Assembly: GCF_051622035.1 (NCBI RefSeq)
Contig: NC_135366.1
Span: 11,117,501 to 11,181,500, forward strand
Length of the DNA: 64,000 nucleotides
Direction of reading: 5' to 3'
Origin: Arctopsyche grandis
Taxonomy: Eukaryota > Arthropoda > Insecta > Trichoptera > Hydropsychidae
The position numbers were made by a program, and so were the translations under genes. Shown piece after piece: positions 957 to 64,000 of this stretch. Position 1 is the stretch's first letter. Each line of letters starts with the position of its first letter. The notes beneath the pieces are model-generated. The model did no database searches. It worked only from the letters and a program-made list of their open reading frames with translations, and was not told the origin of the DNA.

Positions 957-1440
957 TCGTAGATTAGCGGATATTATTTTAACATATTTATCTGGTAACC
1001 TGCGCTCATCATTACTTTCTTAAGTTGAATGTGATGTATGAGTGGAATCTTAATCTACTCTCTTCCATTTGGGCCTCGCTGTGATTTTATTTTTTATTCA
1101 TATTTTGTTTTATTTTATTTTACTTTTTCTTTCTCCTTTGTACATTTTTATATACTATTTTAATTTTATTCAGTGTAAACAAAGAATGGGATTTATGGAT
1201 TTTATTTTTGATTTTTACACTTTTGTTATTTTTTTTTTCCTCTCTGAATGATGTATTATTTTCCTTTTGTTACTTTTTTTATTATTTTATTTTACCATGT
1301 TTTCTGCTTTTGCTTTTTTCCTATATTTACAGTTTACTTGTTTTTATATCATGTTTTTATATATTTTTCAATTGTAGGCCATTGTGGCGCATTAGGTTCT
1401 TCCTGTAATGCCACAATGGTCCAAAACTATTAAATAAAAT
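957..1440 (+). mobile_element. LINE 3' end, 5'-truncated
   Basis: This block matches, in inverted orientation, the 3' end of the LINE at 28882-29582. The shared part includes the tail of the reverse-transcriptase frame (TATTTATCTGGTAACCTGCG region), a T-rich 3' UTR and the terminal hairpin. The hairpin arms are CCATTGTGGC (1379-1388) and GCCACAATGG (1410-1419), followed by a short TAAA-type tail. It is 5'-truncated, as is usual for retroposed LINE copies. The short open frames inside it are low-complexity UTR, not genes. Confidence 0.85.
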
Positions 1441-1859
1441 GTAAAATTTTTCCTTCAAATAACCATTAATTATAATTTTTTTTCAAAAATGAGCAATTCC
1501 TGTTTACATTAAAAATAAATACAAGATAAAAAAAAATAGATTCTGATTCTATTCTGAAGTGTGCATTGTTAAAAAATAAAATAACTACAAATATTCCAAA
1601 AATATATTCACCGTTTCTTTTAATTGCAAAAACTACATATGTGTAAATTTAAATTTTCATTTGTAAAGTTTTAATTTTTTTTTTTGTTAAGTAATATAAT
1701 TTTACCAGAACGTACCCTTCTTTAAAGGAAGAAAATGTAACAAGATAAAAAATTAAATATAATATAATATTTATTATATGTATTTTACAGTTATCTAAAA
1801 ATAATTATGACGAAAATAAAAGCACAAAGCGGCCTGTGTGTCTGCGCCTTAATTATTCG
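1441..1859. other. AT-rich intergenic DNA
   Basis: Very AT-rich with poly-T and poly-A runs. I see no gene or recognisable repeat. Confidence 0.5.
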
Positions 1860-2215
1860 ATCAAAATAAGCTTCTGATAAGATTTGGTTGGTTAACGTCT
1901 TAATTTGAGTTGACTCGCCTCTCGTTCTCTAAAAATAATTTGAAAAGGCTTTGAATTGTCAACTACATATTAATATTCATATGGATTTATATTGGTTTGG
2001 ATTTATTTAATCTAAAATATACTGATCTGGGTGTGGGATTGTTTAGTTTGGGATCGTAGCATGTTATATTTTTTTATATTTATCCTTATTTGTTTTTAAT
2101 TATGGTTACTTTTATTTTTTCACCTTAGTGTACATTTTTTTCTTTTTGTGTAGCCATAGTGACGACTTACAGCTAATCTGTAATTTCACTATAGCGAAAT
2201 TGTAAATAAATAAAT
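1860..2215 (+). mobile_element. Probable LINE/SINE 3' tail
   Basis: T-rich sequence ends in the same kind of terminal hairpin as the other LINE tails: ATAGTGA (2156-2162) pairs with TCACTAT (2186-2192), the inner part reads AATCTGTAAT, and an (AAAT)n tail follows. The 5' limit is a guess. The next LINE starts directly after the tail, so that element probably inserted into it. Confidence 0.5.
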
Positions 2216-2267
2216 ATGATTCGGCGTTCGGCGTTCGCTCGAGTCGCACGTCGCACTGTGCTGTGTT

Positions 2268-3802
2268 TTGAACAAAATTACAACTACTTCTACCATGGAG
2301 GATATTATATCTTTGAGCCGGACGATACTTGCTGACCTTTCAAAGAAGGGTTCTGGTGCCAATGTCCTTACCAGGGACAGGGTGCAATTTATCAGCGCCT
2401 CCATTAACAGTATAGTATCTATCGCACGCGTCGCTTTTGACAGTCTGGCCTCGCTGAAACAGTCTGTGGAGTTCCTCCAGACTGTCCACTCAGATATCGG
2501 CAAAATTAGGAGGATGATGTGTCGTTCTTCTCCGGCAGCAATCCTGGCTCCAGCTGTTTCTGGCGTACCTACGACTCTGCAATCGGGTGAGGTAACATTA
2601 CATGTACTCTCCACTTCGACAACACACATGGAATGCAACAATACCAGCAGCGTGGCTCGGTCGTTAAGCTTCTGCTTAACACTGAGAGGCGCCGAGTTCG
2701 ATCCCTTGAGCTGACCTCGATTGAAAAGAATTTTTCTGAGTATATCTGTAATGCTGCTGGTCAGACCAGGATTTGTGACTCCTGGTTGATCGTTTCCTAT
2801 CAGAGTTTGCCAATTTTCTCTGATTTCATTGTTGAAACGATTCCCGATTAAAAATTGGCTAAAAATCCTTCCTACCCACTATGTCACCACTATTTGAGTA
2901 TGATTAATGTAAATATTACAATAAAAATGTATGTACAATTCATAGATGTCTCGTTAATTGTCGAGTTTAAGTCAGTGTCTCGTAATTTAGCGACTTATAT
3001 AATAAAAAATGCTGTATTGTTTGTAATTTGGCCAGGAAGGCGCATTGGGGTTTACCTGTAATGCCTTCCTGGTATGAAATTAAATAAAATAAAATAAATA
3101 AAATAAAATACCACTGTGTGTAAACAAACACCTGTCAGTGGCCAGTATGAAGTTTCAGCGGTATCCTCTGCCACTTCACCTCAGCATTCTTCAGCTTCAA
3201 CTTCACTTGCATCTGCTTCAGCTTCAGCATTTACTCCTGGTTGTGCTACTGTTTCTGCTTCTCCTTCTTCTCCTATAAAACCCGCGAAATCTTACAGTCA
3301 AGTCGCAGCGCTATCTTCTTCTTCTTCACATCTGCCATCTTCAGCTTTAGGCACACTTACATCAGCTTCTGCTCCAGCATCTGCTTGTGTTCCTGTTTCT
3401 TGTGCTCCTGCTTCTGCTTCTACACCTGATAATATTCTACAGAACACCGCACTATCTTCGTCTCCAGGAACATCATCTCGTCCTTCTCGACAGTTATTTA
3501 CTGGTACCGGTTCTACTAGGAACCTCTTATTGCCAGCACAACATAGGAAGTTTGTTCATGTTATTTATCTTCACAATGACACCACCATTGACTCATTAAC
3601 TAATTACGTAAACATGAAATTGCCATCCAGTGATGCTACAGCTGTAAAATTAAACTCGAAGGGTCCTAAAGTTTACTCTTCTTTCAAATTATCTGTCATC
3701 GAAGCTGTCTATACTAGTGTCTTGAATCCGAACTTTTGGCCCGCTGGTATAGCTTTCAACCCATGGAAATTTCGTCGGAGCCCGGCACCCTATAACAAAT
3801 AG
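2268..3802 (+). pseudogene. LINE ORF1 (gag-like), split by a SINE
   Basis: The first part (2268 to about 2646) encodes a 126-residue N-terminal region with a DIISLSRTILADLSKK segment. The second part (from about 3107) has a long Ser/Ala/Pro-rich linker. It ends in a domain containing SSFKLSV and NPNFWPAGI, which resembles the C-terminal nucleic-acid-binding domain of ORF1p in CR1/Jockey-type LINEs. The two parts are separated by the SINE at 2647-3106. Codon phase is the same on both sides of the 7-bp target duplication, so the frame was open before the SINE landed. The start codon at 2268 is uncertain; another ATG lies at 2295. Confidence 0.8.
2647..3106 (+). mobile_element. tRNA-headed SINE nested in LINE ORF1
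   Basis: The head carries pol III promoter-like boxes: A box in GTGGCTCGGTCGTTAAGC and B box in GAGTTCGATCC (about 2693-2703). A family core follows (GTGACTCC...GATCGTTTC...CAGAGTTTGCCAATTTT), shared with the other SINEs here. The tail is a hairpin, CCAGGAAGGC (3032-3041) with GCCTTCCTGG (3063-3072), then (AAAT)n. A perfect 7-bp duplication AATACCA flanks it (2640-2646 and 3107-3113). Confidence 0.9.
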
Positions 3803-3821
3803 GGTTCGCAAGATTCGCAAG

Positions 3822-4340
3822 ATGACAATGCTGTACCAAAATGTTAGGGGTCTTAACTCCAAAACTGTTGATTGCCTTTCTTCTGTTCTGGTACAGCATC
3901 ATGACTTCATTGCACTTACGGAGACTTGGCTAAATGAATCTGTTTGCGACTTCGAGATATTCGATGATAGATACTTAGTTTTTAGAAGAGATAGAGGCAG
4001 CAGAGGAGGCGGTGTTTTACTGGCTGTTCGTGCCGATCGTGTGCGGTATGCTCAACAAATTCACCGTCTTCAATCAGTTGGTGAACATCTTTGGGTTCGA
4101 GTTGATCTTCCGCGGTGTTCCATCTATATTTGTGTAGTATATTTTCCTCCAAATCAAAACGATAAGATCTCTGAAGTTTTTTTTTTTTTTTTTTTTAATA
4201 AGTTACAAGAGGAATTTAACTTTTTAAAGAGTAAAAATATTTTGATTGTAGGGGACTTAAACACTGTTTCTTTGAAGAATGTAAGCATGGAACTGTCGCA
4301 TATGTGCAAGCTTTTTAATTTACTTTTAATTCAATTTTAA
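3822..4340 (+). pseudogene. LINE ORF2 fragment: AP-endonuclease domain, truncated
   Basis: A 172-residue frame begins YQNVRGLNSKT, continues ALTETWL, then RRDRGSRGGG and VVYFPPNQ, and reaches ILIVGDLN. These are the ordered motifs of the apurinic-like endonuclease that nicks target DNA in non-LTR retrotransposons. After GDLN the similarity stops and the frame ends within 23 residues, so the rest of the endonuclease and all of the reverse transcriptase are deleted. An approximately 20-base T run at 4177-4196 makes a phenylalanine stretch. Confidence 0.88.
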
Positions 4341-4635
4341 CTATTTATATATTTATATATATATGTGATTTTTGTTTATTATTTTCAATTTGTAATTTTT
4401 AATTTTTTTTTAATTTTTGATTTTTCAATTTTTTTTTAATTCTCAATTTTTCAATATTTAATTTTTATTTACAATTTTTTTTAATGTTTTATTTTATTTG
4501 TTTTTCTATTATTATTGTTTTATTTTTTCTTATGTTTTTGATCTTTTATGTATTGTCTGGCTACAGTATCATATTGGGGTGACCTGTAAAGACACTGTGG
4601 TATACTTGTATATTAAATAAATAAATAAATAAATG

Positions 4636-8235: not shown

Positions 8236-9882
8236 TCATTTACAGCCATTCGCCATCCACTGCTGGATGAAGGCCTCTCCAACACGCTTCCACTCGTCTC
8301 TGTTTTGCGCAACACTCATCCATCTCATTCCGCACATTTTCCTAATTTCGTTCACCCATCTTCCTTGCGGTCTTCCTTTTACTCTTTTGCCTTCTCTCGG
8401 GTACCATTCAAGCACTTCTTTTGTCCACCTTTCGTCCATCCTCCTAGCTACGTGACCCGCCCATTGCCATTTCAATCTCTTCACTCTATCCACTATGTCC
8501 ACTACCCTTGTCATATTTCTCACCCACGTGTTCCGCTTCCTGTCTTTCCTCGTTATGCCAAGCATACAGCGTTCCATACTTCTTTGAGTGCATTGGATTT
8601 TATTTTGCATCTTGGCGTTCAGTGTCCAAGTTTCACATCCATACGTCATCACTGGCAAAACGCATTGATCAAAGATCCTTTTCTTCAGGCAGAGTGGCAT
8701 TTTTGATTTAAAAACAGCATTCATCCGTCCAAATGCACTCCACCCTAATTTCATACGTCTCTTTATCTCTTCATTTTTACTACCAGACATGTCAATTATT
8801 TGACCTAAATATAAATAATTATTTACTACTTCTACTGGTTTATCATCTAAGGGGATGCTATCAGGCATGCAATAACTATTGAACATTAGTTTAGTCTTAT
8901 CTACGTTAATTTTTAATCCTACTTTTCTACTTTCCCTGTCCAGCTGTGTTAGTCTGATAAGTAGGTCAGCTGAATCACGAGCTACTAAAACTATATCGTC
9001 TGCGAACCGAAGGTGACTCAAAAAGCGACCATTGATGCTTACTCCGGCTGTATCCCAATCCAATTTCCTGAAAACTCCCTCAAGCACCGCATTGAATAAC
9101 TTGGGCGAGATTGTATCTCCTTGTCTTACTCCTTTTCCTATGCTAAATCTATCTGTACCTGAAAAAATTTTAACCGAAGCTGTGGCATTCTTATATATTG
9201 CAGCTAACAGTCCCACATAGGGTTCCGGCACTCCCTGTGTTTTTAGAGCGTTAAGTACTGCATTATGACTAACTGTATCGAAGGCTTTCTCATAATCGAC
9301 GAAACCTAGGCACAATGGCCGTTGATATTCGTTGGCGCGCTCGATTAGTTCGCCAACTACTTGGAGGTGGTCCATTGTGCTGAAATTTGCCCTAAACCCT
9401 GCCTGCTCTATAGGTTGGTTCTCGTCGAGGATATTTTTCAGCCTTTCTGTAATAACCTTCGTGAAGAGCTTGTAGACCGCTGAAAGTAGACTAATGGGTC
9501 GGTAGTTCTTGATATCGCTTTTGTCGCCTTTTTTGTGTATTAAAATGATAGTTGCGTTATTCCATCCTTCTGGTATAGCTTGGTTCTGGATGCATTTGCT
9601 GAAAAGCCTAGCTAAGATATTAATTAGGGGGGGGCCGCCACATTTTAGTAAGTCAATGGGAATATTATCTTCCCCTGGGGTTTTACCGTTCTTTGCAGTT
9701 TTTAGCGCGGCCTCTACTTCGCTAGGCAATACTGCAGGAACCCTTTGGCCGTGTGTCGATTCCAGAGCGGGGAATTGGCCGTTGTCGTTCTCGTATAGTT
9801 TTGCATAGAACGTGTAAACTCTGTCTATGATTTCTTCTCTATTCCTAATTATTACTCCGCTCTCTGATCTGATTGCGATCAT
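8236..9882 (-). pseudogene. RTE reverse transcriptase and C-terminal domain
   Basis: 548 residues. The palm/fingers motifs are in order: NGKTPGEDNIP (65-75), KNYRPISLLS (125-134), FVDYEKAFD (194-202), GVRQGD (251-256) and the catalytic LRFADDIVLV (291-300). The C-terminal part has the WQWAGHVARR segment typical of RTE-like elements and ends WMANGCK just before the (TCA)n tail. The frame continues upstream of the first methionine in the same phase for about 40 codons, so the listed start is not a real one. The domain itself appears intact. Confidence 0.92.
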
Positions 9883-10006
9883 TTGGTTTTTGCCTAAGAA
9901 AAGATCCTGTTTGCACTTTTTCAGGCTACGGTTATTCTTAATGGTATTTTCTATTAGCTTGCTGTTAAAATCCCTGACATCCCTGACTATTCTCTTTTTA
10001 ATTTCC

Positions 10007-11158
10007 TTATTTACTAGATTGTATTTTATTATCCCTATCTAAATTCCTTTTATGCTTAATTAGGTTTTTTGTTTCCGCTGAAATTTTGCTTAATTTAATC
10101 TGTTTCCTGAATCCACCTAATTTCTTACCTGTTGAGGTTAGAACCGAACTAATTACAGTGTTCAATTCCTCGATGTCTGCTTCTGGGTTTAATTTCCCGT
10201 ATCGATTTCCAAGTTCGAGTTCGAATTCCTTTTTCCTAGACCTTAGTTGAGCGAAATCTGGAGAGTTACTGCATCCTTTTATTAATTTCCTTCGTTCGCA
10301 ATTTATATTAATGGCCATCTTGGCACGGACTAATCTGTGATCGCTACCTATATCTACTTTACTTAAAACACTAACGTCTTTAACGGAGTGCAGGGCATTT
10401 GTTAGGATGAAATCGATCTCGTTTCTGTCTCCTTTAGGACTCTCCCAAGTCCACTTATTGTTGGTGTTTTTCCTGAAAAATGAATTAGTGATAAAGAGCC
10501 TGTTGTGTTCTGCGAATTCTATGAGGCGATCGCCTCTGTCGTTTCTTTGGCCGGTACCAAAATTGCCTACTGCTCTTTCTGTATTTGCCTTTTGTCCTAT
10601 TTTTGCGTTAAAGTCGCCCATGATTATTTTAAAGTGGTGACGGCTATTATCGTATGCGTCCTGTATTTTTTCGTAGAAGTCTTCTATTTCCTCGTCTGGG
10701 TGGCTAGATGTGGGGGCGTACACTTGGAAGATTTGACAAGTGTACCTGCTCGAGATTCTTAATACTATATAGCATATACGTTCCGATATGTCGCGTATTT
10801 CTATAATATTTCTTTCTATTCTCTTATTGATAAGAAACCCTACTCCTCCTATTCTACCATTTGGTAGCCCTCTCCAGTAGAGACAGTTACCACTTTTTAG
10901 GATTATTTGGTTTTGCTGTTTTCGTCTTACTTCACTAAGTCCTACTATATCCCATTTGATATTTTCTAATTCATTCTCTAATGCAAGCACACTTCCTTCA
11001 CTCGATAACGTTCTTACATTGTACGTGGCTAAATACAGGTTTCTATTAGCTAAGCTATCATTCATCGTCACTCTTACCTTGTTGGAGGTTTGGATATTAT
11101 TTCTCGCATTTATCCAAGATGTGTTGAGAAAAAGGCGGTACCTGAGAGAGATTTCCAT
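10007..11158 (-). pseudogene. RTE endonuclease domain, frame broken at its end
   Basis: 383 residues. Motifs: ATYNVRTL (44-51), SEVRR (75-79), VYAPTS (146-151), GDFNAK (181-186), EIDFILTN (247-254) and GSDHRL (271-276), which are the catalytic signatures of AP-like endonucleases. The stop at 10007-10009 appears because the phase is one base off from the following reverse transcriptase. In the other phase the reading continues ...LVNKEIKKR and joins the RT. A single-base indel near 10010-10050 is the simplest explanation. Confidence 0.88.
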
Positions 11159-16261: not shown

Positions 16262-17245
16262 CAACTGACCTACTTAACAGACTAACACAGCTAGACAAGG
16301 AAAGTAGAAAAGTAGGATTAAAAATTAACCTAGATAATACCAAACTAATGCTCAATAGTTATTGCATGCCTGATAGCATCCCATTAGATGATAAACCAGT
16401 AGAAGTAGTAAATAGTTATTTATATTTAGGTCAAATAATTGACATGTCTGGTTGTAAAGATGAAGAGATAAAGAGACGTATGAAATTAGGGTGGAATGCA
16501 TTTGGACGGATGAATGCTGTTTTTAAATAAAAAATGCCACTTTACCTAAAGAAAAAGATATTCGATCAATGCGTTTTGCCAGTGATGAGGAATGGATGCG
16601 AAACTTGGATATTTAACGCCAGAATGCTGTATAAAGTCTAGTGCACTCAAAGAAGTATGAAACGCTGTATGCTTAGCATAACGAGGAGAGATAGAAAACG
16701 GAATATGTTGGTTATAAGTATGACAAAGGTGGTAAATGTAATGGTTAGAGCATTGATGTATAATACACTAGATCCGCCCTCACGCTTTATACTGGTCTCC
16801 CTTTTGGCGCATGCAAAATACATGGCGCATGCACAGTTTCTCTCCGTAGGTGGGTAGGTACCGCTGCGTCGTAGGGAAAAAAAACCTTTTTTTTCCCAAC
16901 TTCCCCGCTAGTTAAACCCCCACACCCCTCAGTTAGTGAAGACAAGATCTCCGACCAAAATCACACGTCAGGGCCCATCTATGTGTATTATATATCTATG
17001 GGTTAGAGTAAAGAAATTTAAATGGTAATGGGCAGGTCACATAGGTAGAATAACGGACGATAGATGGACGAAAGAAGTCTTCGAATAGTAGCCGAGAGAA
17101 TGTAAACGGGTACAAGAAATGCCACATGGGAATTAGGTGGATGAAATCAGAAAAATGGATGGAGTTCCTCAAAACAGCGACGAATGGAAGCGTGTTGAAG
17201 AGGCTTTCATACAGTGGATGACGAATGGCTGTGAATGATGATGAT
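16262..17245 (+). pseudogene. RTE LINE 3' fragment, split by a MITE
   Basis: This matches the C-terminal half of the RTE reverse transcriptase at 8236-9882: LDKESRKVGLKIN, then LMLNSYCMPDSIPLDDKPVEVVN and KRRMKLGWNAFGRMNAVFK. It ends in a GATGATGATG tail after the terminal Gly-Cys codons. It carries several stops (for example near 16528 and 16638) and is interrupted at 16751-17000 by a hAT-type MITE. The copy is dead. Confidence 0.9.
16751..17000. mobile_element. hAT-type MITE (copy A) inside the RTE remnant
   Basis: 250 bp with inverted ends CATTGATGTATAATACAC and CATAGATATATAATACAC (right end, reverse complement). A perfect 8-bp duplication GGTTAGAG flanks it (16743-16750 and 17001-17008), indicating hAT-type insertion. 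The inside contains TTCCCCGCTAGTTAAACCCC and CCCCTCAGTTAGTG, shared with the longer copy at 52927-53504. Relative to that copy it lacks one arm of the internal inverted repeat. Confidence 0.92.
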
Positions 17246-17904
17246 GAATTGTTGGCTATTGTATGAATATACATATGTATATGTATATATGTAGGTATAT
17301 ACATATATTTATTGTGGCTTTTAAAAAATAGAGCAGTGATGTAAGGTTGATCTGGTGCAATCTAGCTAGACAACCGTCTCGTCTCCGACCAAAGGGTCTT
17401 TCAGACTGTATTCGTTGGGAGGGTGGTAGCTTCATGTTGAAGGTTTTATACGTTAACTTCATTGACCTTTAAAATAAAATTGTGACGATTCCAATAAAAT
17501 CGATATCCCCCACCGCTTATACTCTCTCTGAAATTCGGCTAGTCCAAATTTGTCGATCGTTGCATATATGTACATACATACGTATGCTTAGGATTTTTTA
17601 TTTACATATATCTGTTTAGCTACATTGCATAATGTGTTTGGATGTGTACACAGTTAGCCATAGTTTCATAAAACTGGCACGATATATAAAATATTGAGTT
17701 ATATTTGATAAAAATTCCATCTGGTGATTTTAATTATTTTCTTTATCTCTAAATGATAAAGATAATAATTAAAAATTCACTTATATTTCTTACATATAAC
17801 ATTTCATTATTACCATAAGTGCCATGATAGGTTGCCCCCAAAGCGACATATGTACATATACATATTGTTCAAACTTTTACATAAACACATTCTAAAATAT
17901 AAAT
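17246..17904. other. AT-rich intergenic DNA
   Basis: Contains ACATATGT-type microsatellite blocks (17270-17310, 17565-17585). No gene seen. Confidence 0.5.
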
Positions 17905-22750: not shown

Positions 22751-23197
22751 TATTTTATTTATTTATTTTATTTTATTGTCACAAATCAATACACACTCGC
22801 CATTACAGATTTGCTCCAATGCGACGGGTGTACGTTAATGAAATACATAAACAATCAGAAATCAGAAATACAGTAATACATACATATACAATCAGAATAT
22901 ATAGAATATAACAATTAATCAGAAATAATAATCATAGTGACATCTATGGATTTCAGATTACTGTGTATAATTAATACATATTATACACAGGCAGATTTTT
23001 GTGACAACAGGATTAGATTTTTTAATACCAATTTTCAGGAACCGTTTCAGCAATGATCAGATAAAATTGGCAAACTCTGATAGAGAAACGATCGATTTGG
23101 AGTCACAAAACCCCCAAATCTAACCAGCAGTGGCGAGGACACGAACCTATGACCTCAGTGATGCTAAATATATACGCTATCACTAAGCCTTGTTTTG
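22751..23197 (-). mobile_element. tRNA-headed SINE, opposite strand
   Basis: On the minus strand the head lies near 23197-23110 and the core reads GTGACTCCAAATCGATCGTT then CAGAGTTTGCCAATTTTATC. The tail has the hairpin with loop GGAGCAAATCTGT between imperfect arms around 22790-22832, then (AAAT)n at 22750-22780. It is the same family as the SINE at 2647-3106 with a different tail stem. Confidence 0.85.
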
Positions 23198-23600
23198 TAT
23201 AAATCTTGTTTTGATTATTTATCAGATTGTATCTGTATTAGTACACTCTTAGCTTTTGGAGCGATCTGTGTACATGTTCCATTGAAATAAAAAAAATAAT
23301 TATATGCGTGGTAGACATCATCCTTTGTAAACCCCCCCCCCCCCCCGCACAAATCTTTATAGGATGGCTCCTATTTCAAGATCTATTCGACTTATTGATG
23401 AAATCGTTGCTTCCCTGTCTGAATGTGATATTTTTCATCTCAGTGGGCGTGGGCTATCAGAAATTATTTTAACCTGTTTGTCTGATAGCCTAGGCTCATC
23501 ATTATTTTCATAGCTGGGTGGTAATATATGAGTGAATTTTGATTTTATTTGAGCCCCACGGGAATGTTTTGTTATTCACGGCTGGGTCTATATACATATG
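23198..23600 (+). mobile_element. LINE 3' fragments
   Basis: 23198-23295 resembles a LINE tail (GTACACTCTTAGC...GGAGCGATCTG). 23296-23590 encodes, around a 16-base C run, the last part of a CR1/Jockey-like reverse transcriptase: MAPISRSIRLIDEIVASLSE, CDIFHLSGRGLSEIILTCLS. This is collinear with the frame at 29310-29585 on the other strand. It is 5'-truncated. Confidence 0.8.
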
Positions 23601-23945: not shown

Positions 23946-24475
23946 AGCGAGTGGTTTGGCTTAGTGTTAGCGTATATGTTTAGCCCCATGCGATCACTAG
24001 TTCGATCCGCCATAACTGCTGGTTAGATTTGGGGGTTTTGTGACTCCAAATCGATCGTTTCTCTATCAGAGTTTGCCAATTTTATCTGATCATTGTTGAA
24101 ATGGTTCCTCAAATTGGCAAAATAAATCCTTTCCTGTTGTCACAAAAAATCGTATGTATTATTGTGTATAATTTGTAAAAATTATGCACAAAATCTAAAT
24201 CTATAGATGTCTCAATAATCAACTGTATTTATTATGTGTATAAATTGTAATAATTGTGCACAAAATCTAAATTCATAGATGTCTCAATGGATTAATTAAT
24301 TTAAATTAATTCAATGGTCTTTGCGGCCGTATATACATACATATGTATGTAAAATAAAAATGTCTGGCCGTATATTTCATGTTTGGTTTCGAATTATGTA
24401 ATGATTACGCATTGGAGCGATCTGTAATGACGAGTGAACTTTGATTGATTGAATAAAATAAATAAATATATGTAC
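23946..24475 (+). mobile_element. tRNA-headed SINE with internal duplication
   Basis: Head GGCTTAGTGTTAGC (A box) and TAGTTCGATCCG (B box). The core matches the other SINEs (GTGACTCCAAATCGATCGTT, CAGAGTTTGCCAATTTTATC). A segment of about 65 bp (TATTGTGTATAATTTGT...CATAGATGTCTCAAT) is present twice in tandem. The tail has GCATTGGAGCGATCTGTAATG and ends in (AATA)n. Confidence 0.85.
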
Positions 24476-28315: not shown

Positions 28316-28881
28316 ACAATCTGTGTGTTGCTCTGCCTCAAGAATGCTTGGGTTTGTTTTTCGTAATTCTCGACACTTCCATACTCCCACTGTTTTGAGG
28401 CTGCTGTACAATGCTCTAGTTAGAAGTATCTTGGAATACCCCTCTATACGATCTGGAGTCCTTCAACCAAATCTCTATCTATCAAATTCGAACTTATTCA
28501 AAGACACTTCTTTATAAGAAGCAATATGGGATTTACCCATATTTATTTCCTTCGCAATTCGTCATGGGTATGGTCGGCTACACTTTTCTTGAACACGGAA
28601 GGAGTGTTGCCCTCATCAAGTTCTTGTTTTCCATATTTAGAGGTTTTATCTCCTGCCCGTCTATCCTGGCTGAGTTGGGCCTTCATTCTCCGGAGAGTTT
28701 GATATGGACCCGCCATCGTCCCCTTTTTCACACTCCTACAACTACAACTGTGGCTTATAGCAATTCTCCCATTCTTCGTGGCCTCGGTTTCTTAAATTCA
28801 CTGGATGGTGCCATTGACATTTGTCACATCTCTCGTCATTTTCTGCACCACTTCCTAGGTTACAGAGGTCGCGACCAATTA
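28316..28881 (+). pseudogene. LINE reverse-transcriptase C-terminal fragment
   Basis: Motifs SRMLGFVFRN, LRLLYNALVRSILEY and, in another frame, IRSNMGFTHIYFLRN and ARLSWLSW. Frame changes near 28450 and 28620 show it is decayed. These are the thumb and post-thumb segments of the CR1/Jockey group; the catalytic core is absent by 5' truncation. Confidence 0.82.
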
Positions 28882-29582
28882 TTTATTTATTTATTTATTT
28901 AATAGTTTTGGACCATTGTGGCATTACAGGAAGAACCTAATGCGCCACAATGGCCTACATTTGAAAAAGATATAAAAACATGATATAAAAACAAGTAAAC
29001 TGTAAATAAAGGAAAAAAGCAAAAGCAGAAAACATGGTAAAATAAAATAATAAAAAAAAAAGTAACAAAAGGAAAATAATACATCATTCAGAGAGAAAAA
29101 AAAATAACAAAAGTGTAAAAATTAAAAATAAAATCAAAAAATCCCATTCTTTGTTTACACTGAGCAAAATTAAAATAGTATATAAAAATGTACAAAGGAG
29201 AAAGAAAAAATAAAATAAAATAAAACAAAATATGAATAAAAAATAAAATCACAGCGAGGCCCAAATGGAAGAGAGTAGATTAAGATTCCACTCATTCATC
29301 ACATTCAAATTAAGAAAGTAATGATGAGCGCAGGTTACCAGATAAATATGTTAAGATAATATCCGACAATCTGCGCTCCCCAAGGTGGAATATATCACAT
29401 TCAGGGACAGCAGCAACGATTTCATTGAGAAGTCGAATAGCTCTTGGAATAGGAGCCATTCGAAAAAGAACTGTGCGAGCAGCAGGTACAACCATTAAAT
29501 GATGATGTCTACCACGCACATAATTATTAGGGACATAAAGTCCCAACTGTTCCAGCAACAACGGGCATGACGTATTACTACG
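28882..29582 (-). mobile_element. LINE 3' end nested in another LINE
   Basis: 701 bp on the minus strand. It carries the end of a reverse-transcriptase frame (29585-29310; LGLYVPNNYVRGRHHHLMVV, MAPIPRAIRLLNEIVA, YLSGNLRSSLLS), an A-rich 3' UTR, the hairpin CCATTGTGGC with GCCACAATGG (28912-28952 region) and a (TAAA)n tail next to 28881. It is flanked by CAATTA (28876-28881 and 29583-29588), a 6-bp target duplication. It is a close inverted relative of 957-1440. Confidence 0.9.
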
Positions 29583-29790
29583 CAATTAGAACTGCTGAGT
29601 AAGTTTGATCAGTTAAGAATTTTATGTCATCTTTATTTATTTTTCTTTTCTTCTATTTATGTATTTTTACTTGTATTTCGTGTACTTTTTGATTTTTTAA
29701 TCTTTTTAGCACACTCTTCGCTTTGGAACAATTTGTTAGACGAGTGTGCTTGATTAATTTATGTATAATAAAATTAAATTAAATAAATAA

Positions 29791-33104: not shown

Positions 33105-33745
33105 GATTTTTTGCCAGTGTCTTTACATTTGCCCAAAACGACACTGGGGCCAAACATAAAAATATAAACGAAAAAGAAAAAAGACTGAAAATAAGAAAAA
33201 AAATAAAGAACATGTTAACATTTTAAAATTGTAATGCAAAAACAAATAAATAAAAACAAGTAAACAAATTTTTAATTTTTGAAAATGTAATAAAATCGGA
33301 AAGTTTAGTTGAAAAGACGTCTATGTGATTCGCTATCAGGTTGAAGCAATGAGTAGCTCGAACAATGGTGAATCAGCCAGGATCACCATTGTTCGCCTTA
33401 ACCTCCTAGAACAAGAGACGGGCGCGAGACTCGCGGAAGCATATGGAGGCCCAATGTTTCATCTCTTCCAGTACCGAAGAGTTGTCAATCTCACCTTTCA
33501 ATAATTTACAGAAGTGAGATACCAGCAGTAAATCTCTACGAGAAGATAAGGATCCATAACCCACAGCTCCCTGAACAAATGCACTTGGAAATAGTAGGGC
33601 ATAGTAGCCAAACTCTCTCACGTACAAATAACGAAGAAACTTTCTTTGTATTCGTTCAATCTGTAGAGAATATGTTACCTCCCTAGGAATCCAATTTAAG
33701 GATCCATAGTCTAATATGCTACGTACTAAACTGCTAACGTATTAT
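33105..33745 (-). mobile_element. LINE 3' end, another subfamily
   Basis: On the minus strand the coding part reads SLVRSILDYGSLNWIPREV, LQIERIQRKFLRYLYVREF, FVQGAVGYGSLSSRRDLLLV (33740-33406), the C-terminal reverse-transcriptase region of a CR1/Jockey-group LINE. The A-rich 3' UTR ends in hairpin CCAGTGTC (33114-33121, plus-strand coordinates) with GACACTGG (33140-33147). The catalytic core is lost by 5' truncation. The reading frame is open over this stretch, so the copy is relatively young. Confidence 0.85.
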
Positions 33746-37155: not shown

Positions 37156-37590
37156 CACTTATTTATTTATTTATTTTACTTTACATAGATATATACCAGG
37201 AAGGCCTGACAAACAGACCCCAATGGGCCTTCCTAGACAATTAGTTACAAACATTGCAGCATTTTCATTACATAAATCACTGTATTTTGGGAGATTGAAG
37301 CACACGAAATTAACAATTATTTAATTAATCCATTGAGACATCTTATCAGACTTGTACATAATTTTTTACATGTTGTACATAAATCAAATTCAGATATTTG
37401 TTAATGCGGGTAGGATGATTTTTGCCAATTTGAGGAACCGTTTCAACAATGAAAATCAGATAAATTGGCAAACTCTGATGAGAAACGATTTACTTGGAGT
37501 CACAAATATCCTAGTATAACCAGCAGCATTAAAGATTAGCACAGGATCGAACCCAGTAATCTCTCGGTGCTAAACATAAACTCAACCTCA
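37156..37590 (-). mobile_element. tRNA-headed SINE
   Basis: On the minus strand the B box is GGGTTCGATCC (37544-37554). The core reads GTGACTCCAAGTAAATCGTT then CAGAGTTTGCCAATTTATC, and the tail hairpin pairs AGGAAGGCC (37198-37206) with GGCCTTCCT (37226-37234), followed by TAAA repeats at 37157-37180. It is the same family and tail type as 2647-3106. Confidence 0.85.
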
Positions 37591-38041
37591 ACATCTGAAA
37601 AATTATGTTGTGATTTGTTGTAAAGTCTCAAATGTTTCGAAACACATATACTTAAATTTAGTTTATTCCGATTTGTATTAATATTATCTTATATTTTAAA
37701 TCTTCCCTGAATAAGAGTCTATGTATGCCGTTAGTCCTAAAGCCGTCTGTGAGGTTGAATTTATTACAAGTTGAATAAGGCCTGTTGTAAGGTTTGGTTT
37801 AACTGAGTAATTCTAACCGGTCAACCAACATATTGAATTTATCAATAATTTTAAGGAATTTTCACATCATGGGAAAGAAGGTCACTACAACCAGTTTTGT
37901 ACATACAAAAAGTTAATTTTCTACGCGAACTCAACTCCATTAGAATCTTAATGTATATATGTACATACATATATTAATGCTAGATAGTGTGTATTTAATA
38001 TTCAATACGGCCACCTAACGTGATGTTAATAATTATTTCAG
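37591..38041. other. Upstream of the small gene
   Basis: No promoter motif can be named. A good acceptor (TAATTATTTCAG) ends at 38041, so the first visible exon of the next gene is probably preceded by an untranslated exon outside this stretch. Confidence 0.45.
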
Positions 38042-48100: not shown

Positions 48101-51100
48101 AATAATAAGGTTTGTAACTATAATGAATGCTATATGTATGTATTTAACAATAAACATTTTGAATATTATCAAATTTGTTTTAGTACGTATGATGAAATAA
48201 GTTTTTACATGTTGTTTCAACTCCAACAATGAATTTTCAACACTCTCCGGTTGAGGTGCGTCAAGAAATGGAAATTTCCTAACATCGTTAAGTCCCAAAG
48301 ATATCATCAACAGAAGTAAACTATCCAGAGGTACTCGCAGAAGTTCCGGTGTTCCGAAGGATTCCAACGAAGCATATTCCTTTTCTGAATATATACGATA
48401 ACATACTCCAGGCCCTGCAAAGATATATAATAATAATATAAACATTTTATCATTCATTATATAATTAGTGAAGTAAAAATATATGAGAGAAAATTGGTAG
48501 TATACTAATATAACCTTTAACATATTTAATTATTAATTTGTCGAGTGAAAATGATAATATTCTTAAATTATTTATAAATATGTATATAGAATCTTTTGTT
48601 TTTGATATTTCTAATAGGTTTCTCAATTCCTCATTTTACATTGAAGAATTCAAAATACTACATATTACAAATCTTAAATTTTTTTTACTAGCTTTATTTT
48701 GGCTATATTTGTTTTCCATTTAAATACATATTTATATCATTTATTATCAAATTATCTATTAATAGGTATTCATTAATTGTAAAAAATTATACCTGTTCTT
48801 CCAGCTCGACCTTTCCGTTGTTCGGCACTGGATTTCGGTATCCAAAACTCTTTGAGTCGCTGCATTTTTGACGATGGATCATAACTCATCTCTTTAACCT
48901 TAAAAATTAAATACAACAAATGCATACAATGTATGTACATAGTTACGTACATTATGTACATATCATCATCATCATCTACAGCCATTCGCCATCACTGCTG
49001 GATGAAGGTTTCTCGCAACTCTCATCCATCTCACTACACACATTTTCCTAATTTCGTCTACCAATCTTCCCTGCGGTCTTCCTTTTACCCTTTTGCATTC
49101 TCTCGGCACTCCCTTCTAGCACTTCTTTTGTCCACCTTTCGTCCATTCTTCTAGCCACGTGACCCACCTATTGCTATTTCAATTTCTTAACTCTATCCAC
49201 TACCACTACCCTTGTCATACTTCTCACCCACATATTCTGTTTCCTGTATTTCCTCATTACGCCAAGCATACAACGTTTCCTACTTCTTTGAGTGCATTGG
49301 ATTTTGTGACATGTCAATTATTTGACCTAAATATAAATAATGATTTACTACTTCTACTATTTTATCATCTAATGAAATGCTATTAGGCATGCAATAACTA
49401 TTGAACATTAGTTCAGTCTTATCTACTTTAATTTTTAATCCTACTTTCCCTGTCCAGCTGTATTAGTCTGTTAAGTAAGTCAGCTGGATCGCGAGCTATT
49501 AAACCGAGTCATCTTCCGTTCGCAGACGATAGTACATATATAATATAATATAATATATATTCAGCATAGAAAGATCATTGGTTCATGAATAACGAGACCT
49601 TTTTGACTGTTATGTGAAACCACCGGGGCCTTTTCTAGAGCTAATTAACTAATGGTCGACGAGCATCAATCGCCTAATCTTCAAATTACAATATCTACAA
49701 CTATTCAAAATCAATAAAATTTTTATAAATAGACTTTTGCCTTTATTTTGTAAAATATGAATATGGGAAAATAGTCAACTTAGTAGATATGATACCTTTC
49801 CAGAATCAACAACAAATCTAATTCCATCTATGGTGACTGAAGTTTCAGCAATATTAGTTGACACAATACATTTTCTAACACCATCAGGAGGATAATCAAA
49901 AACCTAAAAAAATAATAATAAATTTTGATTAAATATAATATAAACCGTCAAAGAAATACCCATGAATTAAAAATGGATGTACTTTATCCTGATCAGCTAT
50001 AGACAGACTACTGTGTAAAGGTAAAACGATCCATCCCTGACTTTTTTCAGCATATTGATTTGCAGCATCAACGACTGACGTTATTTCTTGCAATCCCGAT
50101 AAGAATATTAAAAGATCTCCCTTTTCAGTCTCTGGAAAATAGTATTATAACATATATAATTTACTTTTAAAATAGATAAACACACTAACTACGATAATAT
50201 AAATTCCACTAGGTATGTATTACATTATCCTAGTGAATCAACGACTTGACACAACTGACAGAATAATGTCTTAATTAATATTAATAATGATATTATAAGT
50301 TTTATACATATTACAAGCAATGAATATGAAGGAAAAAAATTCATTACAACATACATATTTTGCCGACATATACCTATACATATTTTGAATGTATAGGTCA
50401 AACTAGAGTCAACCTAAAATATAGTATAGTCGGTCTAAATAAAACAAAACTCAAATATAGTAATCAGATTACAACTAAATTACAGATATTGTGAGAAAAT
50501 GGCAGTTATTGGAAATTAAAATTTCATTGCTGTTACATAGACACACTAATTGTCTCGTCAACTAAATCTCGTCACGGTAGTTAAATGAAGGTTGTGACAC
50601 ACTGACAGGATTTTACCACTCCAATATGATAAGAATTATGTAGATTTGGTATCCATTGCTTCCAGATGCTGCAGTCCAAACTGTCTTTTGACCACTTGTA
50701 TTGAACAAGGGTTTGAAATTTGTAACGCAACATCTGTGTACAATAAGTACCTTAGTGCAGTTTCGGTTGCAAAATATAAAAGTAAATTCAAAAACAACAA
50801 TTGCTATAAAATGATTAAATATCACTTCCACGTTAATGTACACAATTGATTGTGTTTGTTAAGCTTTTAGTACAATTTATAGATGAACCCACGATTTATA
50901 TGTATATTAAACATATGAAATATTTGCTAACTTGGATATTTCGTGTCTATAATTTGCATTATTTGAAGATACGGCTGTGCATCCAATCGTTCATGTTTTG
51001 ACGTTCTACCTTCAGCCATCGGTCTATAAAATAGCTCTATAGGATAAAGTCTACCTGGAACCTATAAAATTGAATTCGTTTATTTTTAAATCAATGTCTA

Positions 51101-55009: not shown

Positions 55010-55478
55010 TTTTTTTTTTTTCATATTTTTCAGTTTTTTAATTTTTTTCATTTTTTCAGTTTTTTCATTTTTTTCATTTTTTCAGTTTTTTCATTTTTTT
55101 CATTTTTTTCATTTTTTCAGTTATTTCATTTTTTTCATTTTTTCAGTTTTTTCATTTTTTTCATTTTTTTCATTTTTTCAGTTTTTTCATTTTTTTCATT
55201 TTTTCAGTTTTTTCATTTTTTTCATTTTTTTCATTTTTTCAGTTTTTTCATTTTTTTCATTTTTTTCATTTTTTCAGTTTTTTCATTTTTTTCATTTTTT
55301 TCATTTTTTCAGTTTTTTCATTTTTTTCATTTTTTCAGTTTTTTCATTTTTTTCATTTTTTCAGTTTTTTCATTTTTTTCATTTTTTTCATTTTTTTCAT
55401 TTTTTCAGTTTTTTCATTTTTTTCATTTTTTCAGTTTTTCATTTTTTTCATTTTTTTCATTTTTTCAGTTTTTTCATT
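55010..55478 (+). repeat. T-rich minisatellite (TTTTTTCA/TTTTTTCAG)
   Basis: Higher-order unit of about 26 to 35 bp made of TTTTTTCAT steps and one TTTTTTCAG. I count 15 CAG ends. It is open in frame (Phe/His/Gln) only because of the repeat. Confidence 0.95.
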
Positions 55479-55482
55479 GCCG

Positions 55483-55930
55483 GGGGCGCTGGCGGCGCTG
55501 GGGGCGAAGCCCCCGGGGTGCCAAAGGCATCGGGGCGCTGGGGGCGCCGGAGGCGTCGGCGGCGCTGGGGGCGAAGCCCACGGGATGCCGAAGGCATCGG
55601 GGACGCTGGGGGCGAAGCCCCCGGGGTGCCGAAGGCATCGGGGGGGCTGGGGGCGACGGGATGCCGAAGGCATCGGGGACGCTGGGGGCGAAGCCCCCGG
55701 GGTGCCGAAGGCATCGGGGGGGCTGGGGGCGCCGGAGGCGTCGGCGGCGCTGGGGGCGAAGCCCCCGGGGTGCCGAAGGCATCGGGGGTGCTGGGGGCGC
55801 CGGAGGCGTCGGCGGCGCTGGGGGCGAAGCCCCCGGGGTGCCGAAGGCGTCGGGGGCGCCGGAGGCGTCGGCGGCGCTGGGGCCGAAGGCCCCGGAGCGA
55901 CGGAGGCATCGGGGGCAAAGGCGTCAGGAG
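55483..55930. repeat. GC-rich hairpin minisatellite
   Basis: Alternating units of about 42 bp (GCTGGGGGCGAAGCCCCC then GGGGTGCCGAAGGCATCGGG) and about 24 bp (GGGGGCGCCGGAGGCGTCGG). Almost every segment is a hairpin with a GAA or GGA loop. The GC content is far above the rest of the window. Long open frames on both strands (Gly/Ala/Arg or Pro/Arg-rich) follow from the lack of stops and are not called genes. Confidence 0.95.
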
Positions 55931-57645: not shown

Positions 57646-58097
57646 GGTGGCACGACAAATCAGCGCAAACCAACTTAGCGCCGACCTTTCGGCGCAGACA
57701 ACTCAGCGCAACGACAACTCATCGGATGACAATTCAGCGCATGGACTATTCAGCGCAAAATCAATTTTTTCAATAAGTTTCAAATGTGTTTTCAAAAATA
57801 ATTACAGTATTGAAATTGTCGGTCATATCTTCATGATAATTTTATAAATGCGAATAAATTTATTTGATACCCTTTGTGCCCGGTTTAGAAACCCTTTAAA
57901 TTTATTCGCATTTATGAATTTATCATGTAGATATGACCGACAATTTCAATACAGTAATTATTTCTGAAAACGCATTTGAAAGTTATTGAAAAAATTGATT
58001 TTGCGCTGAATAGTCCATGCGCTGAATTGTCATCCGCTGAGTTGTCTGCGCCGAAAGGTCGACGCTAAGTTGGTTTGCGTTGAGATGTCGGTGCGCC
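57646..58097. mobile_element. 452-bp Mutator-like palindromic element
   Basis: Two arms of about 215 bp are inverted copies around a 30-bp centre (about 57865-57895). Ends GGTGGCACGACA and GGCGCACCGACA (right end, reverse complement). A perfect 9-bp duplication GTATATAAT flanks it (57637-57645 and 58098-58106), a length typical of Mutator-like elements. Each arm has a tandem of about seven degenerate ACAACTCAGCGCA motifs at 14 to 18 bp spacing. No transposase. Confidence 0.9.
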
Positions 58098-60710: not shown

Positions 60711-61036
60711 CAGTCGTATCTATCATCTATGTACATACGTACAAATTGAATAGTTTTCCCAGTATCTTTTCATTCTGAAGTAGGTATATTATTTTCATTG
60801 GAATTTTCCTCACAATTTCATATTTTAATAAGTTAGACATTCTTATTAAAAATGCAAAGGAAATTCAATATCTTGTCCTTATTTTATGTTACGCAATATT
60901 TAAATAAAAAAAAAACAAAAGCAAAACAGTTTTATAATTAAAAAAAACGGATCTTTTTTGTTTTCGACTCTTTTGTAATTTAAATCATTTTATATGAATA
61001 TCCAATATGTACCAAATTTTAGAAAATAAAATATGT
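60711..61036. other. AT-rich intergenic DNA
   Basis: Poly-A and poly-T runs; nothing recognised. Confidence 0.5.
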
Positions 61037-61345
61037 CCAGTGCACTCAAATAAATATAGAACGCTGCATGCTTATTAGCATAATGAGGAGAGATAGAAAA
61101 CGGAATACGTGGGTTGGAATTGAAATGACAAATACTGTTGATGTAATTAATAGTGAGGGTAAAGAGATTGAAATTACAATGGGCGGGTCACCTGATTGGA
61201 AGAATGGACGATAGATGGACGAAAGAAGTGCTCGAACGGTACCCGAGAGATTGTAAAAACGTGCAAGGAAGGTCGCAAGGGAGATGGGAGAATGAAATCA
61301 GAAAAATATATATGGCTGTGAATGATGACTATATAATCATCATTT
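61037..61345 (+). pseudogene. RTE LINE 3' fragment
   Basis: Matches the C-terminal RTE domain ([44 protein letters not shown]) and ends near the Gly/Cys-type terminus with an ATGATGA remnant. It is 5'-truncated, with the WMSVAQNRDEW region deleted. Confidence 0.88.
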
Positions 61346-63530
61346 AAAGCCACGTATATAATATTTTAAATATTTATTGGTATTTTTATATTTTAAAATA
61401 TTTCCTAGTACTCCTCAGACTGAAATTTCCCGAAAACAATTTTTTTTATACTTTTCATAAGCGTAATATTTTTTACATAACATTTCCTAGTAGGCAACCG
61501 TAATTTTTCGATGAAATGTCAAAATCATAATATATTATATTATTTTCATGTACTACCTTGTTTTTTGTACTATGTATTTTATGTTTTGAAGTCTATTTTT
61601 TATCTGATTGCATATATATATATATGTACATATGTATATTTAGATTGAATTCGTGGCACATTACGTTTACATTTTTCTAAAATTTCTAAAGTGAGAATTG
61701 ATTTTTTTATTATTTTATTGGAATTATTTTAAATAAATTATTGATCGGACTAGTATCAGAACTTTTTCTTAAAAAGTGTTAATCATATTTTTAATGAAGT
61801 AACCGTTCACGTGTATATAGTACAACGTTTCAGTTATCGAAGACAGATCAGATAGATACTAGTTAACTCTTTATTTGACCCGTAAATCGATTCCTATTGA
61901 AAGTAAATTTTAAAGTACCCTTTGATCGTACATATTTGAGAAGTTTGTCGATCGATTTCCGTTTTGTTTGAAATCGAACGGGTAATAACCGTGAAACGTG
62001 CCTTCATTGTGACGCAATTCCTCACTTGTTTATTACTCGCCCCGTTCAGGTGCTATTTTCACTTACAATAGACAATCTCTCGTTTTGTGCAAAACTTTTA
62101 TATTTATTGTAATAACGATTTCGCAGATCGAGTTATCGAGCGACCTTTAGAAGACTTATAACAATCGCAAAGTGGCATTACTTTACAATCGAACCCAATT
62201 TATCGTCCGACCGATTTGCTCGATTATAATGGGAACCATGGGCAGTACATACATACATATAGGAATGGATACAAAACAACATCATAACACTTTTTCAACA
62301 CAATCGAAACGAATCTCGGATTTTCGCATCTTGTGGATACTTTAGCCTTTATTAAGCGACTCTGTGGCGCGGTTAGTATAAATACTTAGATATAAATTGT
62401 GCAAAGGTTAAAAATTTATGGGTTGCAAGCTTTTTGACGTGGGGGGGTTTCTGTGCAACGGCCGAGACATTCCTAATGGCCTCCACTTAATTTCGAGCCC
62501 AGAAACTTGCAATTATGTATTTGGCACACGGCAATTACCGTTTTCGGTCTTGTGCTGTGCAGATTGTTTGTTGCTTTGGCGAAAATACGACATGCTAACC
62601 GCGTTTATCTGCGCACATCGCGAGCTTCGAACCTGCGAGAGACACGCGATTTTTCCCAGAAGTAAAACACTGCACAATGCTTAAAAGACCCCCCTCAAAA
62701 CAAATAGTGTTTGCCTTAATTTAGTCGAAAGCGCGTCTGAAATTCGATTCGGACCTCCTTTGACGTTCCTCTCAATCGCTCAACTCAATGGGTGAAAATT
62801 TCGAAAGCAGGTACCTACATAGTATAACGGAAGGAAAAACAATTTCAAAAAGTCTACATGTACACGTTTGGCTCGCATTCAAGAAACGGTTCATTTATTT
62901 TTCGAGGAGATAAGAGGGAATTTCGACCGGTAACGGCTTCTACTCGCGCCACGTATCTACCGGCGTGCAGAGGTCAATTATTGCCATTTTTGGGCAAAAT
63001 GGGGTGATGATACCGTAAAGGAAACGGATAGAACGCGCTCGCAAAGCGAAGATCGTATCAAACTCTTTGCGGACCGAAGCAGGATCAGATACGGATTGGT
63101 CACGATGCGTCATCGTAAAGTGCACCCAGTACGGTTACGATCGCATGTTTCGCACACACAACTGGTCAACTTAACACTTTCGAGCTGTATGTTTTCTTTT
63201 TTATAACTTCTTTATTCTAATTCTGTTTAGCGAGCCTCAATTTGGAATGGTTTTTTTATCACTTACACGGCCCGAAGAAAACCTAAATTCTTCAGTTTTA
63301 AATTGACTTTTAGATATAAATTGATACGTACATTCATCGGTATATAAATTAGAAAGAAAAATTTATAGTTTCATGATCAAAATGTAAGTCAAACAAATAG
63401 GCATTTGTGTATCATAAAAATATATTTGAAATCAATTTGGCATCTACATTTTTTCAATTTGTTTTGGACTTGAAAAATTATATTTTCTTATAAAATAAAT
63501 TGTATCGAATCTTTATTACCAGAAACATAA
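61346..63530. other. Intergenic DNA with a GC-richer island
   Basis: AT-rich to about 61800. 61850-63180 is CpG-richer with short open frames (for example 62418-62684) lacking any recognisable domain. No gene supported. Confidence 0.45.
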
Positions 63531-63610
63531 AATGCTCAGCGGTATAGTGCAAAAAAACTATGGGGTCCTGGGTTCGAGCCCAGATTCAGTGTTGCTGGCC
63601 AGACCTTATA
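63531..63610 (+). mobile_element. SINE head fragment
   Basis: GCTCAGCGGTATAGTGC (A box) and GGGTTCGAGCCC (B box) followed by TTGCTGGCCAGACCTT, then cut off by TA-rich repeats. It faces the SINE at 63650-64000. Confidence 0.7.
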
Positions 63611-63649
63611 TACATACATATATGTATTTATTTTATTTTATTTTACACA

Positions 63650-64000
63650 TATGTATTTATTTTATTTTATTTTACCAGGAAAGCCTAACGGGTAAACTCA
63701 ATGCGCTTTTCTGGCCAGAAACATTGTACATTTGAAACACGTATCATTAGTATTATACAAAGTAAATATATAACAATTAACATCCACAGAGACGTTTATA
63801 GTTAGATTTATAAATTTGCAGCATTTTATGCAATTCAGCGAAATTCGAGATTGCTGAAAACTCAAGATTAGCGAAAATGGGTAAGGTTGTCAATTTGTTG
63901 GAACCGTTTGAATTAAGATTAGATAAATTGGCTTAGATAACTCTGATAGAAAACGATCGACCTGGAGTCACAAATCCAAGGTCTGGCCAGCAGAAACCAG
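63650..64000 (-). mobile_element. SINE, partial at window edge
   Basis: On the minus strand the core reads GTGACTCCAGGTCGATCGTT and the tail hairpin pairs CCAGGAAAGC (63675-63684) with GCTTTTCTGG (63705-63714, one wobble), then TAAA repeats. The head lies beyond the window. Confidence 0.85.

What the first reader, a model, noticed from the sequence alone, without database searches (positions are those of the whole stretch)
957..64000. One 3'-terminal hairpin architecture shared by several LINE and SINE families, with covarying stems
At least nine retroelement ends in the window finish with a hairpin just before an (AAAT)n-like tail. Lower stems differ in sequence but stay paired: CCAGGAAGGC/GCCTTCCTGG (3032-3072), CCATTGTGGC/GCCACAATGG (1379-1419, and 28912-28952), GCACACTC/GAGTGTGC (29709-29749), CCAGTGTC/GACACTGG (33114-33147), ATAGTGA/TCACTAT (2156-2192), AGGAAGGCC/GGCCTTCCT (37198-37234). 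Most close with ATT:AAT and have a 12-13 base loop that starts (A/G)GG and ends CTGT. Stem change with loop conservation implies selection on RNA structure. Established parallel: stringent-type LINEs such as eel UnaL2 share a 3' stem-loop with their partner SINEs. Here, one SINE core is fused to at least two tail types, suggesting repeated capture of different LINE tails.
Basis: partly seen in the sequence, partly recalled or inferred. Interest (0 to 1): 0.8.

Follow-up and report, generated by a model that had tools for sequence, protein, structure and literature searches.

The report
Shared tail hairpins of insect retroelements
Several families of jumping elements in this insect-like genome end in the same kind of RNA hairpin, whose stem letters change in matched pairs while its inner part stays the same, and one short parasitic element has picked up several versions of it; this is a clear new example of a known LINE-SINE arrangement.

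Summary
The hairpins are real. A covariance model marks 11 in the window (ten trained it, the eleventh is an identical copy). The six quoted stem pairs are present at their seven places. On ten window tails 84.7% of cells pair (shuffled 64.1%) and 37 cells change on both sides (13.5); no shuffle of 500 reaches either. With genome copies, 32 rows: 87.8% and 132 against 47. Lower stems of ten families are 48% identical; the inner loop and upper stem 70%.

One SINE core carries four tails: I (CCAGGAAGGC), II (TACACTCGTC), III (TCACAGTGAC), IV (CCAGAGTGTC); III and IV rest on one copy each. Tail IV matches the 3' end of the window LINE at 2217-4635 (90.5% over 84 bp): a LINE-SINE pair. Tail II resembles the LINE tail at 29710. 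No LINE with tail I was seen, but the genome search answered only twice. Two exact loop patterns occur 638 and 685 times, controls 0.

The design matches stringent LINE/SINE tails of eel, zebrafish and monocots, where covarying stems with kept loops are published. New member of a known kind; function untested.

The parts
1379..1419 (+). Tail hairpin of LINE family A, copy 1 (element 958-1438, 5'-truncated)
   Evidence: 10-bp stem; R1 46.4 bits; fold z -4.96
28913..28953 (-). Tail hairpin of LINE family A, copy 2 (element about 28870-29583), inserted in LINE L3; short repeat CAATTA at both ends, read by eye
   Evidence: 96% to copy 1; LINE C-terminal peptide and empty-site reading
2154..2194 (+). 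Tail hairpin of family B, AAAT tail to about 2212; no coding body identified
   Evidence: R1 37.2 bits; z -1.98
2217..4635 (+). LINE 'L1': 5' end, ORF1 (2220-2645 and 3113-3802, split by a SINE), part of the endonuclease (3753-4262), only about 300 bp before the hairpin and so no reverse transcriptase, 3' end with hairpin and AAAT tail
   Evidence: Pfam Exo_endo_phos E 2.1e-4, 21.6 bits, below cut-off 24.5; joined ORF1 open; 58 protein relatives of the endonuclease piece
4561..4600 (+). Tail hairpin of LINE L1; its 3' end is shared with a SINE at L032:1317-1356
   Evidence: 84 bp at 90.5%; R1 41.2 bits
2646..3112 (+). SINE type I copy S1a nested in ORF1 of LINE L1; short repeat AATACC
   Evidence: Empty site gives one open ORF1; 27 of 30 sampled genome copies match from its first base
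3032..3072 (+). Tail hairpin, SINE type I
   Evidence: 10-bp stem, R1 51.2 bits, z -4.89
37196..37236 (-). Tail hairpin, SINE type I (SINE about 37162-37600)
   Evidence: z -2.68
63675..63714 (-). Decayed tail hairpin, SINE type I (runs into the window end)
   Evidence: z -0.91
22792..22832 (-). Tail hairpin, SINE type II (SINE about 22755-23200)
   Evidence: R1 42.7 bits, found blind by R2 at E=1.4e-4; z -0.98
24399..24438 (+). Decayed tail, SINE type II (SINE about 23958-24460); loop kept, lower stem broken (3 of 10 pairs)
   Evidence: z +0.73
29710..29748 (+). Tail hairpin of LINE L3 (body 28420-28880 and 29589 on, split by the family A element)
   Evidence: R1 37.3 bits, missed by R2; z -2.43; ORF reading
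33112..33149 (-). Tail hairpin of LINE L2 (C-terminal ORF piece 33406-33741)
   Evidence: 8 of 10 pairs, 10-nt loop; R1 34.2 bits; z -0.70
23239..23282 (+). Fragment resembling the L3/type II tail with the 3' arm missing
   Evidence: alignment, by eye; not found by the models

Best explanation
These are the 3' recognition hairpins of a group of stringent-type LINEs and of the SINEs that use them. Shown: the elements end in a lower stem of up to 10 bp, an internal loop (GC.ATT facing AAT), a 3-bp upper stem with a 2-6 nt apical loop, then an A-rich or (AAAT)n stretch; the lower stem keeps its pairing through matched changes; the inner part is better kept; one SINE core is found with four tails, one of which matches a LINE end in this window. 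Inferred: the LINE ORF2 protein binds this hairpin in the RNA and starts target-primed reverse transcription from the short repeats behind it, reading mainly the inner part and only the helical shape of the stem, so stems drift while loops stay. SINEs that gain a LINE 3' end, probably by template switching during reverse transcription, gain that LINE's machinery; this has happened repeatedly on one core.
For: Hairpin excess over shuffles. Covariation: 37 both-side cells vs 13.5, score 0.608 vs 0.223, slid frames 0.278 or less; 132 vs 47.1, 0.634 vs 0.218, slid 0.250 or less. Whole-arm exchange among eight window tails, the decayed 24399 included: 66 of 80 pairs own, mean 43.9, 4 of 40,320 permutations as good; among ten families, intact genome copies standing in for decayed window ones: 88 of 100, mean 61.5, 7 of 300,000 as good, best 90. 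Third upper-stem pair GC:17, AU:12, GU:1, other 2. Five window SINE copies share a core but have two tails; tails III and IV on the same core, one copy each. LINE L1 and SINE IV share 84 bp at 90.5%, A-rich tail included, and 53 of 57 bases from the hairpin start. 638 and 685 exact loop matches, controls 0. 27 of 30 type I copies match S1a from its first base, 26 of 30 at 97.5% or more (places chosen by an exact loop, so intact copies are favoured). The RTE-type element at 8236-11158 and its relatives have no model hit at E<=0.01 near their ends. Published: in ZfL2-1 a loop swap cut retrotransposition sharply, a stem swap left about half (PMC4176376, passages).
Against: Fold z-scores are weak for 5 of 10 tails (between -0.98 and +0.73). 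On the 32-row set two measures are not clearly above shuffles: pairs with both-side change 47 of 500, further pair types 415 of 500; rows there are related copies picked by me, and the decayed 24399 tail was left out. The shuffle control does not keep relatedness. The blind model R2 misses L3 and separates type I copies poorly from antisense strands. Target-site repeats are poor: longest shared flank 5.8 nt vs 4.9 in swapped controls (27 copies). No LINE partner for tail I was seen. LINE L1 has no reverse transcriptase. Tails III and IV on the SINE core rest on one copy each. No function was tested.
Confidence: 0.87

Rival explanations
1. Common descent only: the tails descend from a few ancestral hairpins and differ by whole-arm replacement or drift, with no present selection on pairing.
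For: Stem types fall into a few groups (A/B; L1/L2/S3; L3/S2; S1), and arms of related families are partly interchangeable. Old copies lose their stems (24399-24438).
Against: Matched both-side changes occur between close groups: A and B at pairs 5 and 9, S2 and L3 at pairs 1 and 10, and among type I copies at pair 8 (63675-63714). Pairing is kept across ten families with 48% stem identity.
Confidence: 0.08
2. The hairpins act in RNA stability, 3'-end formation or transcription of the elements rather than in recognition by reverse transcriptase.
For: They sit just before the 3' end, and hairpins can affect polymerases or exonucleases (general knowledge, recalled).
Against: The inner part is more conserved than the stem (70% vs 48%), which suggests a sequence-reading partner; a LINE and a SINE, normally made by different polymerases (recalled), share the end.
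Confidence: 0.05
3. Chance inverted repeats in AT-rich DNA.
For: AT-rich sequence (33% GC) and weak z-scores in half the tails.
Against: 0 of 200 shuffles give even one motif-bearing hairpin before a tail; hundreds of exact genome matches with zero controls.
Confidence: 0

Closest known systems
Eel UnaL2 LINE with its partner SINE, and zebrafish ZfL2-1/ZfL2-2 (stringent-type L2 clade LINEs; PMC4176376, abstract, outline and passages seen)
   Same: 3' stem-loop just before short tandem repeats, shared by LINE and SINE; loop read specifically, stem generally.
   Different: Other host; AAAT-like tail instead of the TGTAA repeats of UnaL2 (PMC3747384, passage); loop letters were not compared by a tool; clade of these LINEs not settled.
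Monocot L1-clade LINEs and SINEs (Ohshima, PMC3747384, passages seen)
   Same: 3' hairpin shared by LINEs and SINEs, compensatory stem changes, conserved loop bases.
   Different: Plant L1 clade; here ten tail families from one genome and four tails on one SINE core.
HaSE1/HaSE2/HaSE3 SINEs of Helicoverpa (PMC3272025, abstract and outline seen)
   Same: SINEs sharing head and core with different 3' regions, one from a LINE.
   Different: HaSE1 tail is like an RTE LINE's and HaSE2's 3' region like a mariner-like element; here all four tails are hairpins of one design.
ZenoSINE and Zenon LINEs of heliconiine butterflies (PMC6685494, passages seen)
   Same: Insect SINE/LINE pairs sharing the 3' tail.
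   Different: No hairpin in the main text ('hairpin' and 'stem' 0 occurrences).

Membership tests
Stringent-type LINE/SINE pair (UnaL2-like in working) | LINE and SINE share the 3' end sequence | tested here: met
   LINE L1 end vs SINE at L032: 90.5% over 84 bp; ungapped identity of the 57 bases upstream 26 of 57. For tail II resemblance only; for tail I no LINE seen.
Stringent-type LINE/SINE pair (UnaL2-like in working) | Stem-loop near the 3' terminus | tested here: met
Stringent-type LINE/SINE pair (UnaL2-like in working) | Terminal short tandem repeats rather than plain poly(A) | tested here: inconclusive
   AAAT-like repeats behind most window tails, but several type I genome copies end in near-pure A runs
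Stringent-type LINE/SINE pair (UnaL2-like in working) | Hairpin required for retrotransposition and bound by ORF2 between endonuclease and reverse transcriptase | not testable with these tools
   needs cell and binding assays; no intact ORF2 of these families in the window
L2 clade of LINEs | Reverse transcriptase falls in the L2 clade | not tested
   no reverse transcriptase domain of these families was obtained; two C-terminal pieces have no Pfam match and one gave no relatives
tRNA-derived SINE | 5' head with tRNA A and B boxes | tested here: inconclusive
   B-box-like GTTCGATCC read by eye in heads; the motif is recalled; A box and transcription not tested, find_trnas not run

The most novel reading that the evidence does not exclude
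One inner-loop module works as a common pass-key for a whole set of LINE families in this genome, the lower stem being a freely drifting spacer helix, and a single SINE core has captured at least four of these tails one after another, switching hosts as LINE families rise and die. The genome would then hold a natural series of experiments on which loop letters set reverse-transcriptase specificity.
Probability: 0.35. Interest if true: 0.6.

Novelty: new member of a known kind. Interest (0 to 1): 0.42.

Why it matters
How strictly a LINE enzyme chooses its RNA decides which SINEs can spread. Here one genome offers ten tail families around one loop design and one SINE core with several tails, so the published idea that the enzyme reads the loop and not the stem letters can be tested by comparison and then at the bench. 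The sampled type I SINE copies are close to the window copy (26 of 30 at 97.5% or more), so this system may be recent or active.

Tried and rejected
Chance inverted repeats: rejected by shuffles and genome counts. Known RNA family: no Rfam match at gathering score; the four weak matches at E<=1 lie elsewhere. Relatives in viral contigs: one match to the loop pattern, in what reads as phage coding sequence; a stricter pattern and three protein scans found none. Loop pattern in genome contigs: none. Protein relatives: the L3 C-terminal piece none; the endonuclease piece 58 of 81 candidates, best named one from the caddisfly Arctopsyche grandis, 54% over 75%; the clade was not settled. NCBIfam and PDB searches of LINE pieces gave nothing of use. 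Target-site repeats across 27 genome copies are too weak to use; 23 of the 27 show GCC just before the first base that I took, so my 5' end may be a few bases short. Sampling of 9 stretches of 10 kb, places set by me on C1, C2 and C12, gave 4 tails at E<=0.01, roughly one per 22 kb. Model hit 17814-17854 (E=0.055) was read and judged chance. On A6 MAFFT shifted the L3 row, so the family count was made by hand alignment; A6 was not used for counts.

Full report
What was checked. The window (64,000 bases, 33% GC) lies in an assembly of 475,669,232 bases in 189 contigs. The six quoted stem pairs exist at their seven places. A strict scan finds 5 perfect-stem hairpins before A-rich tails against 0.5 expected; 4 carry the loop motif against 0 in 200 shuffles. 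A covariance model of ten window tails scores 11 places at E 2.1e-6 or better (ten are its training rows, the eleventh is identical to one). A model from five tails recovers one tail of an untrained family clearly (22792-22832, E=1.4e-4), another in part (0.078), misses L3, and scores two more copies of a trained family (0.003, 0.008) about as antisense strands score.

Anatomy. Ten window tails align in 41 columns without manual help: a lower stem of 10 pairs, GC on the 5' side, ATT facing AAT, an upper stem of 3 pairs, an apical loop, GT, then the 3' arm. RNAalifold on its own predicts the 10-pair lower stem and a 4-pair upper stem with a 4 by 4 internal loop. With the named structure, 84.7% of 157 cells pair (shuffled 64.1), 37 cells change on both sides (13.5), covariation score 0.608 (0.223); no shuffle of 500 reaches these; pairs with both-side change (11) are reached by 11 and further pair types (26) by 14 of 500; frames slid by 1-3 columns stay at or below 0.278. 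A second set has 32 rows: 9 window tails (24399 and the identical second A copy left out) and 23 genome tails picked by me as non-identical from the 72 genome hits then at hand (67, 1, 2 each). It gives 87.8%, 132 (47.1) and 0.634 (0.218); pairs with both-side change are reached by 47 and further pair types by 415 of 500 shuffles. One row per family: eight window tails form 66 of 80 lower-stem pairs, exchanged arms 43.9 on average, 4 of 40,320 exchanges as good; ten families, with intact genome copies for L1, L3 and type II and single copies for three new families, form 88 of 100, exchanged 61.5, 7 of 300,000 as good, best 90. Mean identity between families is 48% in the lower stem and 70% in the inner part. 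The upper stem varies in step in most families (AGG/CCT, GGG/CCT, GGA/TCT, AGA/TCT); in B, L2 and L3 it is not fully paired.

The elements. S1a (2646-3112) is a SINE inserted in ORF1 of a LINE: removing it joins one open ORF1 reading. The LINE (2217-4635) has its 5' end, ORF1, a piece of endonuclease (Pfam E 2.1e-4, below the curated cut-off) and its 3' end, but no room for a reverse transcriptase. Family A (two window copies, 96%) is a 5'-truncated LINE with a readable C-terminal peptide; its copy at 28870-29583 interrupts LINE L3. L2 and L3 C-terminal peptides look related by eye and both match the same stretches of L007, L014 and L015. The five window SINE copies share a core (GTGACTCC..ATCGATCGTTT..ATCAGAGTTTGCCAATTT); four pairs compared are 87-98% alike over the central 60 columns, but the copies end in two tails.

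Genome copies. The exact type I loop pattern occurs 638 times and the type II pattern 685 times; the backwards control gives 0 for both. Of the first 30 type I places, all carry the CCAGGAAGGC/GCCTTCCTGG stem type with small changes, 28 of 30 fully paired with GU allowed, and 29 of 30 show the SINE core upstream. Of 20 type II places, 10 are fully paired and 15 show the core by motif. Of the 30 type I copies, 27 match S1a from its first base. Model R1 over these 50 loci gave 67 tails at E<=0.001: the 50 pattern places and 17 others. One of the 17, L032:1317-1356, joins the SINE core to tail IV. A separately fetched stretch, L052, joins the core to tail III at 1312-1351. Tail IV is the tail of the window LINE: 84 bp at 90.5% including the A-rich end, 53 of 57 bases from the hairpin start, against 26 of 57 ungapped just upstream. 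L043:1985-2023 is a second tail of the L3 type; the sequence behind it (GATTGATTGAAT) also stands behind the type II tail at 24399.

Mechanism. Target-primed reverse transcription by stringent LINEs needs recognition of the 3' tail. In zebrafish ZfL2-1 and ZfL2-2 the ORF2 protein reads the loop specifically and the stem in a general way; in ZfL2-1 a stem swap left about half of the activity and a loop swap cut it sharply (PMC4176376, abstract and passages). In monocot L1-clade LINEs and SINEs the stems carry compensatory changes while loop bases are kept (PMC3747384, passages). The window fits that rule. The SINE gains mobility by taking a LINE 3' end; several tails on one core argue for repeated capture. 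Steps shown: structure, covariation, a shared LINE-SINE end, several tails on one core. Steps inferred: protein binding, mobilisation, template switching.

Limits. The genome search answered two of 42 requests, so the LINE partner of the abundant tail I and copy numbers for tails III and IV are missing. Fold z-scores are weak for 5 of 10 tails. Target-site repeats do not stand out. The LINE clade is unsettled. The listed titles and abstract starts of six paper searches (long lists were cut) show no report of this insect system; that does not prove there is none.

On recount these were mended: apical loop length, core identity range, the blind-model wording, the make-up of the 32-row set, the ZfL2-1 wording, and the tail-repeat membership row (now inconclusive).

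Noticed in passing
8236-11158 (-): RTE-like LINE (label recalled) with endonuclease and RVT_1 domains in two ORFs (Pfam E 3.8e-13 and 9.2e-34) and an ATG-repeat end read by eye; related pieces at 16262-17247, 48962-49503, 61023-61307. No tail hairpin near them at E<=0.01.
   Followed up: partly
38903-39304 and 57653-58090: Long inverted repeats (79% over 428 bp, 83% over 462 bp), perhaps small DNA transposons; the first gives weak miRNA-family matches below gathering score.
   Followed up: no
55478-55915: Repeated stretch open in several frames on both strands.
   Followed up: no
2154-2220: LINE L1 begins directly behind the AAAT tail of element B, as if it inserted into that tail (by eye).
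   Followed up: no
23295-23512 (+): Diverged fragment of a family A-like LINE C-terminus (74% over 218 bp to 29311-29528; peptide), without a tail.
   Followed up: no
L002-L031: Several type I tails in genome copies are near-pure A runs, whereas some window LINE tails are regular AAAT repeats.
   Followed up: no
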